Assembly: GCA_016190825.1 (NCBI GenBank)
Contig: JACPPV010000032.1
Span: 1-64,000, forward strand
Direction: 5' to 3'
DNA length: 64,000 nucleotides
Source: Chloroflexota bacterium
GTDB lineage: Bacteria; Chloroflexota; Dehalococcoidia; Dehalococcoidales; UBA2162
The position numbers and the translations under genes are program-made. The notes below the pieces were generated by a model. That model saw only the letters and a list, made by a program, of their open reading frames with translations. It did not search any database and was not told the origin of the DNA. Below, piece after piece: positions 22,930-61,799 of the stretch (position 1 is the first letter of the stretch; every line of letters begins with the position of its first letter).

Positions 22930-22983
22930 TCTCTTTCTCTCCCCACCCCCACCCTCATCTCCGCCTTGAACGTGCCGCACGGT
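22930..22983 (-). repeat. Degenerate third copy of the radA 3' end
   Basis: Reverse complement ACGTTCAAGGCGGAGATGAGGGTGGGGGTGGGGAGAG encodes TFKAEMRVGVGRE versus radA TLREAIRVGVGRG. Confidence 0.6.
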
Positions 22984-23238
22984 CTAAGCCTGGTACGCAT
23001 CACCTCTTGACCTCACCCGGTAGATGGTGACCACCTTTGCTTCATCGTCAATCTGGTAAAGGATGCGGTAGTCACCCATGCGAATCCGGTAGCCCTCTCT
23101 GGCGGTCAGTTTTTTGGCGCCGGGCGGACGGGAGTTCTCAGCCAGACCGGCGATAACCCTGTTGACTCTCTCCCGGATTTGCGTCGGAAGTCTCCCAACT
23201 TGCCGGTGGGAGCTGCGGCTAACCTCCAGCCGGTACAC
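22984..23238 (-). CDS. RelE/ParE-superfamily toxin
   Basis: VYRLEVSRSSHRQVGRLPTQIRERVNRVIAGLAENSRPPGAKKLTAREGYRIRMGDYRILYQID; probable GTG start overlapping the antitoxin. Confidence 0.85.
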   Translation of the reverse strand: MYRLEVSRSSHRQVGRLPTQIRERVNRVIAGLAENSRPPGAKKLTAREGYRIRMGDYRILYQIDDEAKVVTIYRVRSRGDAYQA

Positions 23239-23506
23239 GGCTTTTCCGATGTTTCGCCTTGGCGAGGTGCTCCTCAAAGGGCATCGTTGGCTCTCTGTCA
23301 AGCTCAGCCTGAAGCAGATCGGCGGCATCGGACAGGTCTTCCAGGCGTTCTATCATATCGTTATACTGGTCAATGCCGATTAGGACGGCCTTGACCCGGC
23401 TGCCGGAGACTATCAGATAAGGTTCTCCGCCTGCCGAGACCTCATCCACAAGCTGCGTCAGTTTTGGCCGGGCCTCCGCCATACCGATTGATTTGATCTT
23501 AGTCAT
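23219..23506 (-). CDS. Phd/YefM-type antitoxin
   Basis: MTKIKSIGMAEARPKLTQLVDEVSAGGEPYLIVSGSRVKAVLIGIDQYNDMIERLED. Confidence 0.88.
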   Translation of the reverse strand: MTKIKSIGMAEARPKLTQLVDEVSAGGEPYLIVSGSRVKAVLIGIDQYNDMIERLEDLSDAADLLQAELDREPTMPFEEHLAKAKHRKSRVPAGG

Positions 23507-23620
23507 AGCGCTCTCCTTAATGGATACATTAACATTAATATTAATGTTTGGCAAGTTGTTTATGGGCAGCTACCCGTGGAACTGCCATGCCGGCCACCGA
23601 GCCAGAATCCAAGTGGGGTG

Positions 23621-23677
23621 GGAGTAGATTCCCGCTGGAGTTTACCCCTGCGAAGTCAGGGGCGGGAATGACAATAG
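23621..23677. repeat. Dispersed hairpin repeat copy 1
   Basis: ggagtagattcccgctggagtttacccctgcgaagtcaggggcgggaatgacaatag; homologous to 63621-63678. Confidence 0.85.
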
Positions 23678-23714
23678 AGGTGCGGAAATAGCACCTCACG
23701 CAATCTGTTCTTTT

Positions 23715-23777
23715 CCGCTGTCTCTCCCCACCCCCACCCGTATCGCCTCCCGCAGGGTGCTGACAGGGTACGACCTT
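23715..23777 (-). repeat. Second copy of the radA 3' end
   Basis: Reverse complement encodes YPVSTLREAIRVGVGRDSGKEQIA*, closely matching radA IPAATLREAIRVGVGRGKEASASE*. Confidence 0.85.
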
Positions 23778-23978
23778 TCACACGGTCTCAAACTGGAGGC
23801 GCTTCAGTTCCTCGGGCGGAATACGCTTCTTAATACCAAGAATCTCAATGCCCACCGCCTGCCCATTGGCGTTATAGTCCACGATAATGCCGGGCTGAAC
23901 TTCCTCGGATTCGACTATCTGGCTTTCGTCGAGGCGGAAATACAGGGCATCGCTGGACTCATCTATCTTGATTCTCAT
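23778..23978 (-). CDS. DUF2283 family protein
   Basis: MRIKIDESSDALYFRLDESQIVESEEVQPGIIVDYNANGQAVGIEILGIKKR; start moved from 24161. Confidence 0.88.
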   Translation of the reverse strand: MRIKIDESSDALYFRLDESQIVESEEVQPGIIVDYNANGQAVGIEILGIKKRIPPEELKRLQFETV

Positions 23979-24253
23979 ATGTTCCTCCATTCCCGGCGGT
24001 CGAAAAACAATGTGACAATAATCATCGGTGACTCGCCTTCTTGCCTGGTCACCACTCTCAGCACGCGCCCGCCATGCTCCCGTATCGGCTTTAGATAGTG
24101 GACAGTGCCGTCTTCGTTTCGCTCTGTCCGCATCGGCTCCGCTATCGTGCGCTCGACCCACTCCAGGGCTATGTTACGCTCTTTGAGCATGTCCTCTGCG
24201 TGAGCGGTGAAGTTTAGCTCTATTATCAGCGTCTCCTGAGTTAATTTTACCAT
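23975..24253 (-). CDS. DUF4258 family protein
   Basis: LNFTAHAEDMLKERNIALEWVERTIAEPMRTERNEDGTVHYLKPI; 4-nt overlap with the DUF2283 ORF. Confidence 0.85.
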   Translation of the reverse strand: MVKLTQETLIIELNFTAHAEDMLKERNIALEWVERTIAEPMRTERNEDGTVHYLKPIREHGGRVLRVVTRQEGESPMIIVTLFFDRREWRNI

Positions 24254-24283
24254 AAAGCGGGTGGCTACACTGAATTAAGTCCG

Positions 24284-25678
24284 TCATTCACTTGCGCTTG
24301 CTTCCTTCCCTCTCCCCACCCCCACCCTTATCGCCTCCCGGAGTGTGGCGGCGGGGATAAGCTCGATTTCGGGGGGAGCGTCAATCCGGGCATTGGCCTT
24401 GGGAATGATGCAGCGTTTGAAGCCAAGGCGGGCGGCTTCGTTCACCCGGCGGTCAAGCTGGGGGACGGCTCTTAGCTCGCCACCCAGCCCCACCTCCCCC
24501 ACCACCGCCATGTGCGGGTCAACAACGGCATCGCGGAAGCTGGAGGCAATTGCCATGGCAATGCCCAAATCCGCCGCCGGCTCTTCGATTCTCAGCCCGC
24601 CGGTGACGTTGACCAGGACATCCTGGTTACCCAGCTTCAGGCCGGCCCTTCTGGATAGCACGGCGGAGATCAGGAGCAGTCGATTGAAGTCCACCCCGCT
24701 GGCGGTGCGCCGGGGTTGCCCGAAGCTCGTTGGATTGGTTAGTGCCTGTATCTCCACCAGCAGAGGGCGGGTGCCCTCGAAGGTGGGCACTACCACCGAG
24801 CCAATGGTCTCCTCACCTCTTTGGGACATGAACGCCTGTGATGGATTTGCCACTTCGACCAGACCCTCCGATTTCATCTCGAAGACGCCGATTTCGTTGG
24901 TAGAGCCGAAGCGGTTCTTCACACTCCGCAGTAGGCGATAAGGACTGAAAGGCTCCCCCTCCAGGTAAATTACAACATCGACGATGTGCTCCAGGACGCG
25001 AGGCCCGGCAATGGCGCCGTCCTTGGTCACGTGGCCCACCAGGAAGATTGGCACGTTCCGCGTTTTTGCCCAGTGCATCAGCCTTGAGACGCACTCCCGC
25101 ACCTGTGTGACGCTGCCGGAAGAGGAATCCACTTGAGGCGCGTACACCGCTTGCACCGAATCAACCACAACCAGGCCGGGGGTAAGTGTTTCGACCTGGT
25201 CCAGGATGACTTCGAGGTTGGTCTCCGACAGGAGGTAAAGGTTTTCTCCCCTTATCCCCAGCCGCTCCGCCCGCAGCTTGATCTGGCGCTCTGTCTCTTC
25301 CCCCGAGACGTAAACCACTGTACTACCCCCTTGCGCCATCAAAGCGGAAACCTGGAGCAGCAGAGTTGATTTGCCGATGCCCGGGTCGCCCCCGATGAGC
25401 ACCACCGAGCCCGGCACCAGCCCCCCTCCCAGCACCCGGTTAAATTCATTGATCGCCAGTGGCAGCCGGTCTCGGGCTTCGATGGAGACCCCCGACAGTT
25501 CTAGTGGCGGGCTCAGGGATGCATCCGGCTGAAATGCCGCTGAAACGACGACCGTTTTTTCGACCAGGCTATTCCACTGCTGGCACTCGGGGCAGCGGCC
25601 CAACCATTTGAGGCTCTCCTTGCCACATTCCTGGCAGACAAAGATGGCGCGGCTTTCCGGGCGGTTGCTTCTGACCAT
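24284..25678 (-). CDS. radA: DNA repair protein RadA (Sms)
   Basis: FVCQECGKESLKWLGRCPECQQWNSL zinc motif; GGDPGIGKSTLLLQ; KNRFGSTNEIGVFEM. Confidence 0.97.
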   Translation of the reverse strand: MVRSNRPESRAIFVCQECGKESLKWLGRCPECQQWNSLVEKTVVVSAAFQPDASLSPPLELSGVSIEARDRLPLAINEFNRVLGGGLVPGSVVLIGGDPGIGKSTLLLQVSALMAQGGSTVVYVSGEETERQIKLRAERLGIRGENLYLLSETNLEVILDQVETLTPGLVVVDSVQAVYAPQVDSSSGSVTQVRECVSRLMHWAKTRNVPIFLVGHVTKDGAIAGPRVLEHIVDVVIYLEGEPFSPYRLLRSVKNRFGSTNEIGVFEMKSEGLVEVANPSQAFMSQRGEETIGSVVVPTFEGTRPLLVEIQALTNPTSFGQPRRTASGVDFNRLLLISAVLSRRAGLKLGNQDVLVNVTGGLRIEEPAADLGIAMAIASSFRDAVVDPHMAVVGEVGLGGELRAVPQLDRRVNEAARLGFKRCIIPKANARIDAPPEIELIPAATLREAIRVGVGRGKEASASE

Positions 25679-59833: not shown

Positions 59834-61192
59834 CTACTCCGTGCCTTCTTTTTGCGGGCTATCGTCTTTATATCTCAGCGGCCACCAGCTTTTAAGCCGC
59901 TCAAGTACCTGCTTCTCGAAACCCTGGTCGCTCGGCGTGTAGAAACGCTTGCCCTGGAGAGATTCCGGCAGATTCTGCTGCTCGACGAAATGGCCCGGGA
60001 AATTGTGGGCATATTTGTAGTCCTTGCCGTAGCCGATCCCTTTCATCAGCCCCGTAATCGGATTACGCAGATGGAGCGGCACAACATCGCTGGCACCTTT
60101 TCTTATCTCCTCTTGCACCTTCGAGTAGGCCGCGTAGAGGGAGTTACTCTTCGGGGCTTGAGCCAGGTAGACCACTGCCTGAGCCAAAGCAAGGCTGCCC
60201 TCCGGCATGCCGATGAAGTGGACTGCCTGCTGGGCTGCCATCGCCACCACCAGCGCCTGCGGGTCCGCCATACCGACGTCCTCCGAGGCAAAGCGCACCA
60301 GCCTGCGGGCGATATACAGTGGGTCCTCGCCCGCCTCAATCATCACCGCCAACCAGTATAGACCGGCATCCGGATCTGAGCCTCGCAGGGACTTGTGCAA
60401 AGCAGAGATCACATCGTAGTGGCGGTCGGCGGCGCGGTCGTAGCGCAAAGCCCGTCGCTGGATGGCATCCTCGATTGTCTCCAGGGCAATGCGGCGCGCG
60501 CCTTCAGCGTCAGGGGCGGTGTTCATCGCGGCCAGCTCCAACGCGGTAAGGGCGATGCGCGCATCATGGTCGGCCATGGTGACCAGGTGGTTCGTGGCGG
60601 CTTCTTCCAGCACCACATTCATTTCGCCCAGGCCATATTCTTTATCATGCAAAGCCCTCGCAATTATGCGGCGCATATCGCCATCGGAAAGGGCATTGAG
60701 GACAAACACCCGGCAACGGGACAACAGTGGTGAATTGACCTCAAAAGATGGATTTTCAGTGGTGGCGCCGATAAAGGTGACGGTGCCGTCCTCGACAAAG
60801 GGCAGCACGGCGTCCTGCTGCGACTTATTGAAACGGTGGATTTCATCAATGAAGAGGATGGTCTTGTGCCCGTAGAGCTTGCGGCGCTCCTTGGCGTCCT
60901 GGATAACCCGGCGCAGGTCGGCCACGCCGGCGGTGACGGCGCTGAGGGCATCGAAGTGGGACTTGGTCATCCGGGCGATGATGTAGGCGAGGGTGGTCTT
61001 GCCGCTGCCCGGCGGCCCCCAGAGAATCATGGAGGGAAGCTGGCCGGTCTCGATCGCCTTTCTCAGCACCCGCCCTGGTCCGATGATATGTTCCTGGCCC
61101 ACGAAGTCTTCAAGCGTAGCCGGCCGCATCCGCGCCGCCAGCGGCTCGTCTTTTTTCTTCTCCTGTTCGAAATGGTGCTCAAAAAGGTCCAT
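59834..61192 (-). CDS. rarA: Replication-associated recombination protein A (RarA/MgsA AAA+ ATPase)
   Basis: MDLFEHHFEQEKKKDEPLAARMRPATLEDFVGQEHIIGPGRVLRKAI; LWGPPGSGKTTLA. Confidence 0.97.
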   Translation of the reverse strand: MDLFEHHFEQEKKKDEPLAARMRPATLEDFVGQEHIIGPGRVLRKAIETGQLPSMILWGPPGSGKTTLAYIIARMTKSHFDALSAVTAGVADLRRVIQDAKERRKLYGHKTILFIDEIHRFNKSQQDAVLPFVEDGTVTFIGATTENPSFEVNSPLLSRCRVFVLNALSDGDMRRIIARALHDKEYGLGEMNVVLEEAATNHLVTMADHDARIALTALELAAMNTAPDAEGARRIALETIEDAIQRRALRYDRAADRHYDVISALHKSLRGSDPDAGLYWLAVMIEAGEDPLYIARRLVRFASEDVGMADPQALVVAMAAQQAVHFIGMPEGSLALAQAVVYLAQAPKSNSLYAAYSKVQEEIRKGASDVVPLHLRNPITGLMKGIGYGKDYKYAHNFPGHFVEQQNLPESLQGKRFYTPSDQGFEKQVLERLKSWWPLRYKDDSPQKEGTE

Positions 61193-61194
61193 AA
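61175..61194. repeat. 20-bp direct repeat covering the rarA start, copy 1
   Basis: gtgctcaaaaaggtccataa, identical to 61780-61799. Confidence 0.95.
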
Positions 61195-61195
61195 C

Positions 61196-61465
61196 TTAGA
61201 ACAAGTCCTTCAGCCGGTCGTAGGTGTCTTCGGAACGACGTGCGATTTTCACTACGGCTATGCGCCGCTCTCTGTCAAGGATTGCATAAATGACTCGCCA
61301 TTCGCCTACTCTAATACGATGTATCACGCCGCTTAATTTCTTGACTCCTATTGGCCGCGGGTTATTCTCAAGTTCACCGATGACGGCATCCAGACGCTTC
61401 TGGTCATTTGCAGCTAGTTTTTCGAACTCACGTCGGGCGCGCGGAGTGAACCCGACCTCATACAT
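61196..61465 (-). CDS. RelE/ParE-superfamily toxin
   Basis: MYEVGFTPRARREFEKLAANDQKRLDAVIGELENNPRPIGVKKLSGVIHRIRVGEWRVIYAILD. Confidence 0.9.
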   Translation of the reverse strand: MYEVGFTPRARREFEKLAANDQKRLDAVIGELENNPRPIGVKKLSGVIHRIRVGEWRVIYAILDRERRIAVVKIARRSEDTYDRLKDLF

Positions 61466-61691
61466 TCACTTTTTTCCGCCGGCGCACTTCGGCTAAACTG
61501 ACTGCCGAAGCTGGATTGGCCAAATACTTTTTCAGTTCTTCCTCGCCATCACGGATATCCTCGATATCTTCCCCATAGACCGCTTCCACCGCACGCCTGA
61601 CTAATTCAGCGATTGAAGTATTGGCTTCAAAAGCCAGCTTTCTAAGCCCCTCGTGTGCTTCCTCCGATAGGTAAATCATCGTTCTTTTCAT
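61458..61691 (-). CDS. Ribbon-helix-helix-type antitoxin
   Basis: MKRTMIYLSEEAHEGLRKLAFEANTSIAELVRRAVEAVYGED; 8-nt overlap with toxin; start moved from 61787. Confidence 0.85.
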   Translation of the reverse strand: MKRTMIYLSEEAHEGLRKLAFEANTSIAELVRRAVEAVYGEDIEDIRDGEEELKKYLANPASAVSLAEVRRRKKVNV

Positions 61692-61779
61692 TGGTTTCTC
61701 CACATCATTTTTTAGATATTGTAACATATATATGTCATAATATCTATATGCCACTTGCTGTCTTCTTCTCCCCAAACTC

Positions 61780-61799
61780 GTGCTCAAAAAGGTCCATAA
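61780..61799. repeat. 20-bp direct repeat copy 2, degenerate rarA 5' end
   Basis: Minus strand ATGGACCTTTTTGAGCACGAGTTTGGGGAGAAGAAG encodes MDLFEHEFGEKK, then a stop after 17 codons. Confidence 0.9.

What the first reader, a model, noticed from the sequence alone, without database searches (positions are those of the whole stretch)
22930..24360. Two TA-like cassettes stacked at radA, each followed by another copy of the radA 3' end
On the minus strand, radA ends ...IPAATLREAIRVGVGRGKEASASE*. A DUF4258-DUF2283 pair follows, and directly after the DUF2283 stop lies a second radA tail: YPVSTLREAIRVGVGRDSGKEQIA* (35 of 38 nt identical over CAC...GAGAG). A Phd-RelE pair follows, and directly after its stop lies a third, more decayed tail (TFKAEMRVGVGRE). 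The order is radA-tail, TA, tail, TA, tail. Integrative elements are known to carry a replacement 3' end for the gene they enter, but these units are only 0.6-0.8 kb and encode no recombinase. With the rarA locus (61.2 kb) this suggests small TA cassettes that enter at gene edges and rebuild the edge they disrupt.
Basis: partly seen in the sequence, partly recalled or inferred. Interest (0 to 1): 0.82.

Follow-up and report, generated by a model that had tools for sequence, protein, structure and literature searches.

The report
Addiction cassettes flanked by duplicated gene ends
In this bacterium and its relatives, tiny toxin-antitoxin gene pairs sit between two copies of a neighbouring gene's end, so the invaded gene stays whole; this hints at how such cassettes can move between chromosomes without any recombination enzyme of their own.

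Summary
radA's 3' end is followed by DUF4258-DUF2283, a second radA tail, Phd-RelE, and a third, short, decayed tail. The shared 18-mer occurs nowhere else in the 1.8-Mb genome. The rarA case is also real.

It is general. In the same genome, edge duplications flank TA pairs at purD, ispG, ftsK, recG, sbcC and a metallopeptidase gene, a type II R-M at mutL (40/40 nt), and GIY-YIG ORFs at trpD and carB. Flanking repeats: 9/16 TA loci versus 16/600 random positions; across the order 17/74 versus 16/280. The same cassette occupies recG's edge in two genera with unrelated downstream DNA.

[quoted passage not shown] Differences here: TA cargo, and the two edge copies differ mostly at synonymous sites, more than duplication followed by decay predicts (0/1000; 0/400). 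One edge therefore probably arrived with the cassette, through recombination anchored in the target gene. Addiction could then prevent loss by repeat deletion. The mechanism is inferred, and no strain-level empty site was available. New variant of a known kind; interest 0.72.

The parts
24284..25678 (-). radA, intact; its last codons carry edge copy 1
   Evidence: (up to 76% identity to radA of relatives)
24310..24356 (-). edge copy 1: radA 3' end (47 nt)
23975..24253 (-). DUF4258 protein (putative toxin)
   Evidence: Pfam PF14076
23778..23978 (-). DUF2283 protein (putative antitoxin)
   Evidence: Pfam PF10049
23773..24266 (-). DUF4258-DUF2283 cassette as delimited by homologs in G114 and others
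23722..23768 (-). edge copy 2: second radA tail, starts about 9 nt after the DUF2283 stop
23599..23689 (.). interspersed repeat (many partial copies in the genome) lying between copy 2 and the Phd-RelE pair; not part of the duplication
23219..23506 (-). Phd/YefM antitoxin
   Evidence: Pfam PF02604
22984..23238 (-). RelE/ParE toxin (GTG start likely)
   Evidence: Pfam PF05016
22982..23555 (-). Phd-RelE cassette; its paralog (G000 C8:5538-6111) and homologs in relatives align over this same block
22937..22970 (-). edge copy 3: decayed radA tail, contains the exact 18-mer
59834..61192 (-). rarA (mgsA), intact
61156..61194 (-). rarA 5' edge inside the intact gene (39 nt)
61196..61465 (-). RelE/ParE toxin; its stop lies 3 nt before the rarA ATG
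61458..61694 (-). ribbon-helix-helix antitoxin
61761..61799 (-). fragment copy of the rarA 5' edge (82%)

Best explanation
These are recombinase-free TA insertions at gene edges. SHOWN: the cassette (TA genes plus promoter, ending near the last stop codon) lies between two copies of one gene edge; one copy is in the intact gene and the other is a fragment of 24-205 nt. SUPPORTED: the two edge copies derive from two different functional alleles of the gene, so one came in with the cassette from another lineage. INFERRED: foreign DNA carrying gene-edge plus TA pairs with the resident gene at the edge. One join is by homology inside the gene, which gives it a foreign edge and keeps it whole; the other join falls inside the resident edge, which is left behind as a fragment. 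The duplicated edge can then act as the second homology arm in later transfers, so only the target gene, not its neighbourhood, need be shared. The repeats would allow deletion of the insert, but losing a TA (or R-M) kills or stalls the cell, so addictive cargo is what persists. At radA this happened twice: Phd-RelE first (most decayed outer tail, copy 3), then DUF4258-DUF2283.
For: Structure and rarity. Enrichment: own genome 9/16 TA loci versus 16/600 random positions; 5 of all 7 RelE genes, a sixth (mtnP) borderline at 24 nt; order-wide 17/74 versus 16/280. Repeats lie on start or stop edges of unrelated genes. Two-allele origin: differences at codon positions 1/2/3 = 32/24/86, 70 synonymous and 47 nonsynonymous codons, no premature stop in 17 sites; duplication-plus-decay simulations give 0.47 third-position and 0.36 synonymous fractions, with 0/400 reaching the observed 0.61 and 0.60. 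radA fragment closer to relatives than the current end in 26/29. The same DUF4258-MqsA-like cassette occupies recG's 3' edge in G009, whose downstream DNA is unrelated, and within-genome edge copies (79%) are more alike than fragment versus fragment (69%). The same RHH-RelE sits before mtnP in five genomes of three families, with an edge fragment in two. Single, unduplicated ends in the relatives examined: radA, recG in all but G009.
Against: No strain-level empty site or donor was available; relatives are genus-level or further. For recG the intact edge is the one closer to relatives, and ffh shows no difference, so 'fragment = native, intact edge = foreign' is not uniform. At mutL the copies are identical (40/40 nt), which a plain target duplication explains equally well. 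Some TA loci have no flanking repeat (own C8; most order loci). Addictive function was not tested here; for DUF4258-DUF2283 even the TA status rests on domain pairing.
Confidence: 0.55

Rival explanations
1. Classic insertion with long target duplication: the cassette inserts between staggered breaks (or through a template switch), the resident edge is copied so that both copies start identical, and the fragment then decays.
For: Same anatomy as described for R-M systems (PMC1643837, PMC3874152, PMC3031569). mutL-R-M copies are 40/40 identical. For recG the intact copy is the better conserved one.
Against: Differences are too synonymous and too third-position-biased for a neutrally decaying copy (0/1000; 0/400 with GC-to-AT bias); no premature stop in 17 fragments; the radA fragment resembles relatives more than the gene end does.
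Confidence: 0.28
2. The duplication was inherited vertically from a common ancestor and kept similar by gene conversion between the two copies.
For: Within-genome copies at recG are more alike than copies between genera.
Against: Conversion resets the copies to identity, after which neutral decay would again follow, contrary; relatives lack the duplication at radA and almost all lack it at recG; downstream DNA at recG is unrelated.
Confidence: 0.07
3. Remnants of integrase-driven integrative elements (att-flanked, integrase lost; tandem accretion of cis-mobilizable elements).
For: Stacked order tail-TA-tail-TA-tail; gene 3' ends are common integration targets; one order-level case is a tRNA 3' end (L302).
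Against: Many unrelated genes are used, both 5' and 3' ends, repeat length 24-205 nt, no shared core seen and no recombinase in any insert.
Confidence: 0.04
4. Chance or low-complexity similarity of a G-rich stretch, or unrelated small duplications into which TA genes later fell.
For: The shared 18-mer is G-rich; tail 3 has little beyond it.
Against: 18-mer unique to the three sites; similarity extends to radA-specific coding sequence; enrichment around TA loci.
Confidence: 0.03

Closest known systems
Insertion with long target duplication of restriction-modification systems (Nobusato et al. 2000, Gene 259:99-108; as cited in PMC1643837, PMC3031569, PMC3874152)
   Same: Compact addictive cassette, no transposase, flanked by long variable direct repeats of the target (order of 100 bp); a mutL R-M case of this kind exists in this very genome.
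   Different: Cargo here is mostly type II TA (also GIY-YIG); repeats lie on gene start or stop edges; copies differ like two functional alleles. The original paper is not in the library, so its details were read only through citing papers.
Cis-mobilizable elements / att-flanked islands lacking an integrase (own knowledge)
   Same: Direct repeats derived from a gene end; tandem stacking; no recombinase inside.
   Different: No common att core or target; repeat length varies; 5' edges are used as well as 3' ones.
Integron gene cassettes, which often carry TA pairs (own knowledge)
   Same: Small TA units with a repeat after each.
   Different: Repeats here are copies of the adjacent host gene, not attC sites; attC folding and IntI were not tested.
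Homology-facilitated illegitimate recombination (own knowledge; no hit in the library)
   Same: One homologous and one illegitimate join would yield a hybrid gene edge, the foreign insert and a leftover resident edge.
   Different: Known from transformation experiments, not as a recurrent route for TA cassettes.

Membership tests
Insertion with long target duplication (ILTD) | insert flanked by direct repeats of target sequence | tested here: met
Insertion with long target duplication (ILTD) | repeats long and variable | tested here: met
   24-205 nt
Insertion with long target duplication (ILTD) | empty site with a single copy in a closely related genome | tested here: inconclusive
   single ends in distant relatives for radA and recG; no strain-level relative held
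Insertion with long target duplication (ILTD) | the two copies start as identical copies of the resident target | tested here: inconclusive
   mutL 40/40 identical, but 17 diverged sites do not fit duplication plus neutral decay
Insertion with long target duplication (ILTD) | cargo is a restriction-modification system, as in the published cases | tested here: not met
   cargo at radA and rarA is TA; an R-M case exists at mutL (methylase PF01555)
Type II toxin-antitoxin (Phd-RelE, RHH-RelE) | adjacent antitoxin and toxin of known families | tested here: met
   PF02604 + PF05016; RHH_1 + PF05016
Type II toxin-antitoxin (Phd-RelE, RHH-RelE) | toxicity neutralised by the partner | not testable with these tools
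   needs expression assay
Type II toxin-antitoxin (DUF4258-DUF2283) | established TA family | tested here: inconclusive
   only domains of unknown function matched; the pair is conserved in G114
Integrative element / CIME | site-specific recombinase in the element | tested here: not met
   no such ORF in the inserts
Integrative element / CIME | one att core shared by elements of a kind | tested here: not met
   no common sequence at junctions of different sites on inspection
Integron cassette | attC site after each gene and an integron integrase | not tested
   repeats are host gene ends, so not pursued

The most novel reading that the evidence does not exclude
TA cassettes flanked by duplicated gene edges are recombinase-free 'edge-homing' units: the duplicated edge is a portable homology arm that lets edge-TA-edge enter the same gene in other lineages by ordinary homologous recombination, independent of neighbouring synteny, replacing the gene's end and leaving the old end as a fragment, with addiction locking the insert in.
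Probability: 0.3. Interest if true: 0.88.

Novelty: new variant of a known kind. Interest (0 to 1): 0.72.

Why it matters
How tiny chromosomal TA pairs move without any mobility gene is an old open question. A gene-edge duplication is a readable scar: it marks the target, orders successive insertions and may say which copy is foreign. It makes the question testable by counting such scars, by looking for empty and filled alleles in populations, and by measuring whether toxin activity prevents repeat-mediated loss. It also extends to TA pairs a pattern so far tied to restriction-modification systems, as expected if both persist by post-segregational killing.

Tried and rejected
(1) Genome-wide interspersed repeat as source of the tails: rejected, 18-mer unique; a real interspersed repeat at 23599-23689 is separate. 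(2) Tails shared by relatives without TA: radA loci of relatives show no downstream copy, and no other of 156 order genomes has two matches to the radA-tail pattern. (3) Viral source of the tail: exact pattern absent from viral contigs. (4) Precise ends of the Phd-RelE block as proof of a mobile unit: not used, because functional limits alone would give it. (5) Uniform 'fragment is native' rule: radA yes, recG no, ffh neutral. (6) GIY-YIG ORFs as a driver of mobility: 20/28 have flanking repeats, but on reading them most are paired tRNA-Ser genes or interspersed repeats, so not claimed. (7) Searches for papers on TA pairs with long target duplications found none; Furuta et al. 2010 (PMC2853133) is not held.

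Full report
WHAT IS THERE. The window is contig C27 of a 1.82-Mb draft genome whose nearest radA relatives among named public records are labelled Chloroflexota and Dehalococcoidia. On the minus strand, radA (24284-25678) is followed by DUF4258 (23975-24253) and DUF2283 (23778-23978), a second radA tail (23722-23768), Phd/YefM (23219-23506) and RelE/ParE (22984-23238), and a third tail (about 22937-22970). Tails 1 and 2 share 35 of 38 nt and 47 nt ungapped, and both read on as radA-like peptide to a stop at the same codon. Tail 3 keeps only the exact 18-mer and some flanking similarity. The 18-mer occurs at these three places only in the whole genome.

Relatives do not carry the extra tails: in the radA loci examined (up to 1.5 kb downstream) no copy is found, and among 156 genomes of the order only this one has two matches to a radA-tail pattern. 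The low-complexity worry fails for tail 2, which matches radA ends of six relatives at 80-90%. It stays partly open for tail 3.

RARA.

THE SAME THING ELSEWHERE IN THE GENOME. 1.76 Mb of the genome was fetched in stretches and scanned for local direct repeats. Among two-copy repeats, these lie on gene edges and flank small cassettes (target genes named from their protein sequence by me except where Pfam was run): purD 5' edge / RelB-like antitoxin + RelE; ispG 3' / ParD-like + RelE, followed by a remnant of a second such antitoxin; ftsK 3' / MazE-like + RelE-like; recG 3' (121 nt) / DUF4258 + a weakly MqsA-like zinc-finger protein; sbcC 3' (40 nt) / HicB-like + HicA; a metallopeptidase 3' / HicB-like + HicA; mutL 3' (40 of 40 nt, ending in the stop codon) / DNA methylase + a putative restriction enzyme; trpD 5' (44 nt, starting at ATG) and carB 5' (29 nt) / GIY-YIG ORFs. 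A 24-nt copy of the mtnP start flanks one more RHH-RelE pair. No insert holds a recombinase, and I see no sequence shared by the targets or junctions. Insert genes mostly run in the target gene's direction and the second edge copy usually begins within a few tens of nt after the last stop codon.

STATISTICS. With interspersed repeats masked and 1-kb flanks, 9 of 16 TA genes have a flanking repeat scoring 20 or more, against 16 of 600 random positions. All RelE genes of the fetched genome were enumerated by HMM (7); five pass and one is borderline (mtnP). Order-wide, PF05016 loci plus homologs of the window's cassettes gave 17 of 74 against 16 of 280 random positions on the same contigs; no P value is given because control positions overlap and a few of the 17 are a tRNA end, an interspersed repeat or a probable larger element. 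Clear new gene-edge cases include queA 3' (L136), ffh 5' (205 nt, 91%, L149), a flavin-reductase-like gene 5' (L294), sbcD 5' (L272), polX-like 5' (L312), glutaredoxin-like 3' (L286) and mtnP 5' (L318). In a phylum-wide sample 6 of 29 score 20 or more; on reading the ORFs at least two look like gene-edge cases (L435, L437). TA families other than RelE, DUF4258 and Hic were not enumerated.

WHERE DID THE SECOND EDGE COME FROM? If the resident edge were simply copied at insertion, the fragment would afterwards decay as non-coding DNA. I compared intact and fragment copies at 16, then 17 sites. In the 17-site set, differences fall 32/24/86 on codon positions 1/2/3; 70 changed codons are synonymous and 47 not; none makes a premature stop. 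Simulated duplication plus decay, letting the functional copy accept synonymous change freely, gives a third-position fraction of 0.41-0.47 and a synonymous fraction of 0.31-0.36, never reaching the observed 0.60-0.61 and 0.59-0.60 in 1000 or 400 runs. The result holds without the two most diverged sites (4/400 and 0/400) and in the own genome alone (1/400 and 0/400). So both copies were coding alleles for most of their divergence: one edge is probably foreign. At radA the fragment, not the gene, resembles relatives (26 of 29), as expected if the gene's end was replaced; at recG the reverse holds (24 of 28 for the intact copy) and ffh is neutral. Relatives are far away and related to each other, so these counts are not independent tests.

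SAME CASSETTE, SAME EDGE, OTHER NEIGHBOURHOOD. G009, another genus of the family, has the recG cassette (240 nt at 81%; its DUF4258 gene mostly deleted and an interspersed-like repeat inserted) between recG and a recG tail copy, while the DNA beyond is unrelated to ours. Within each genome the two edge copies are 79% identical, but fragment versus fragment only 69%. This argues for separate entries at the same edge rather than one old duplication. An RHH-RelE pair likewise precedes mtnP in five genomes of three families. Conversely, one TA family can occupy different edges: RelB-like + RelE at purD here and at a polX-like gene in G001; Phd-RelE at radA here, queA in G021, and without repeats at C8.

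HOW IT LIKELY WORKS. See Best explanation. Shown: anatomy, recurrence, enrichment. Supported: two-allele origin. Inferred: one homologous join in the gene, one join inside the resident edge, reuse of the duplicated edge as homology arm, and retention by addiction. At radA the outermost, most decayed tail dates the Phd-RelE entry as the older one.

WHAT IS KNOWN. R-M systems are described as inserting with long and variable target duplications, first in Helicobacter (Nobusato et al. 2000, read through PMC1643837, PMC3031569, PMC3874152). The review PMC3874152 attributes this to R-M systems and discusses TA pairs mainly as passengers of plasmids, prophages and integrons. Five searches of the library found no report of TA pairs with such duplications, which is weak evidence of absence since subscription papers are missing. 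I therefore call this a new variant of a known kind.

LIMITS. Draft genomes; no strain pair; gene names of most targets rest on sequence recognition; toxicity untested; control positions were random, not matched intergenic ones. Because edge copies are diverged, assembly duplication is not a plausible cause, except that it cannot be excluded for the identical mutL pair.

Noticed in passing
G000 C2:116592-118296 (outside the window): A type II R-M system (N6/N4 methylase plus putative restriction enzyme) sits between two identical 40-nt copies of the mutL 3' end, stop codon included: a seemingly recent insertion with long target duplication.
   Followed up: partly
G000 C5:9741-10273, C7:72547-73246; loci L386-L415: Small GIY-YIG ORFs lie inside trpD and carB 5'-edge duplications; across the order many lie between paired tRNA-Ser genes, and L396 shows a 48-nt tRNA 3'-end duplication.
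   Followed up: partly
G000 C17:2804-4209; L318, L299, L320, L326: An RHH-RelE pair is found directly upstream of mtnP in five genomes of three families, with a leftover mtnP start upstream of the TA in two of them.
   Followed up: partly
window 23599-23689: Interspersed, partly palindromic repeat (attgtcattcccgcccctgacttcgcagggg...) with many partial copies in the genome, lying between radA tail 2 and Phd-RelE.
   Followed up: no
G000 C36 (2407 bp): Contig whose first and last 96 nt are 99% identical: possibly a small circular molecule or a repeat-bounded contig.
   Followed up: no
G000 C38:1-1031: Array with the recurrent unit GCACCCGCGCAGGGTGCGAC, probably a CRISPR array.
   Followed up: no
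G000 C10:26939-27250: Remnant of a second ParD-like antitoxin just beyond the ispG tail copy: another stacked insertion like that at radA.
   Followed up: partly
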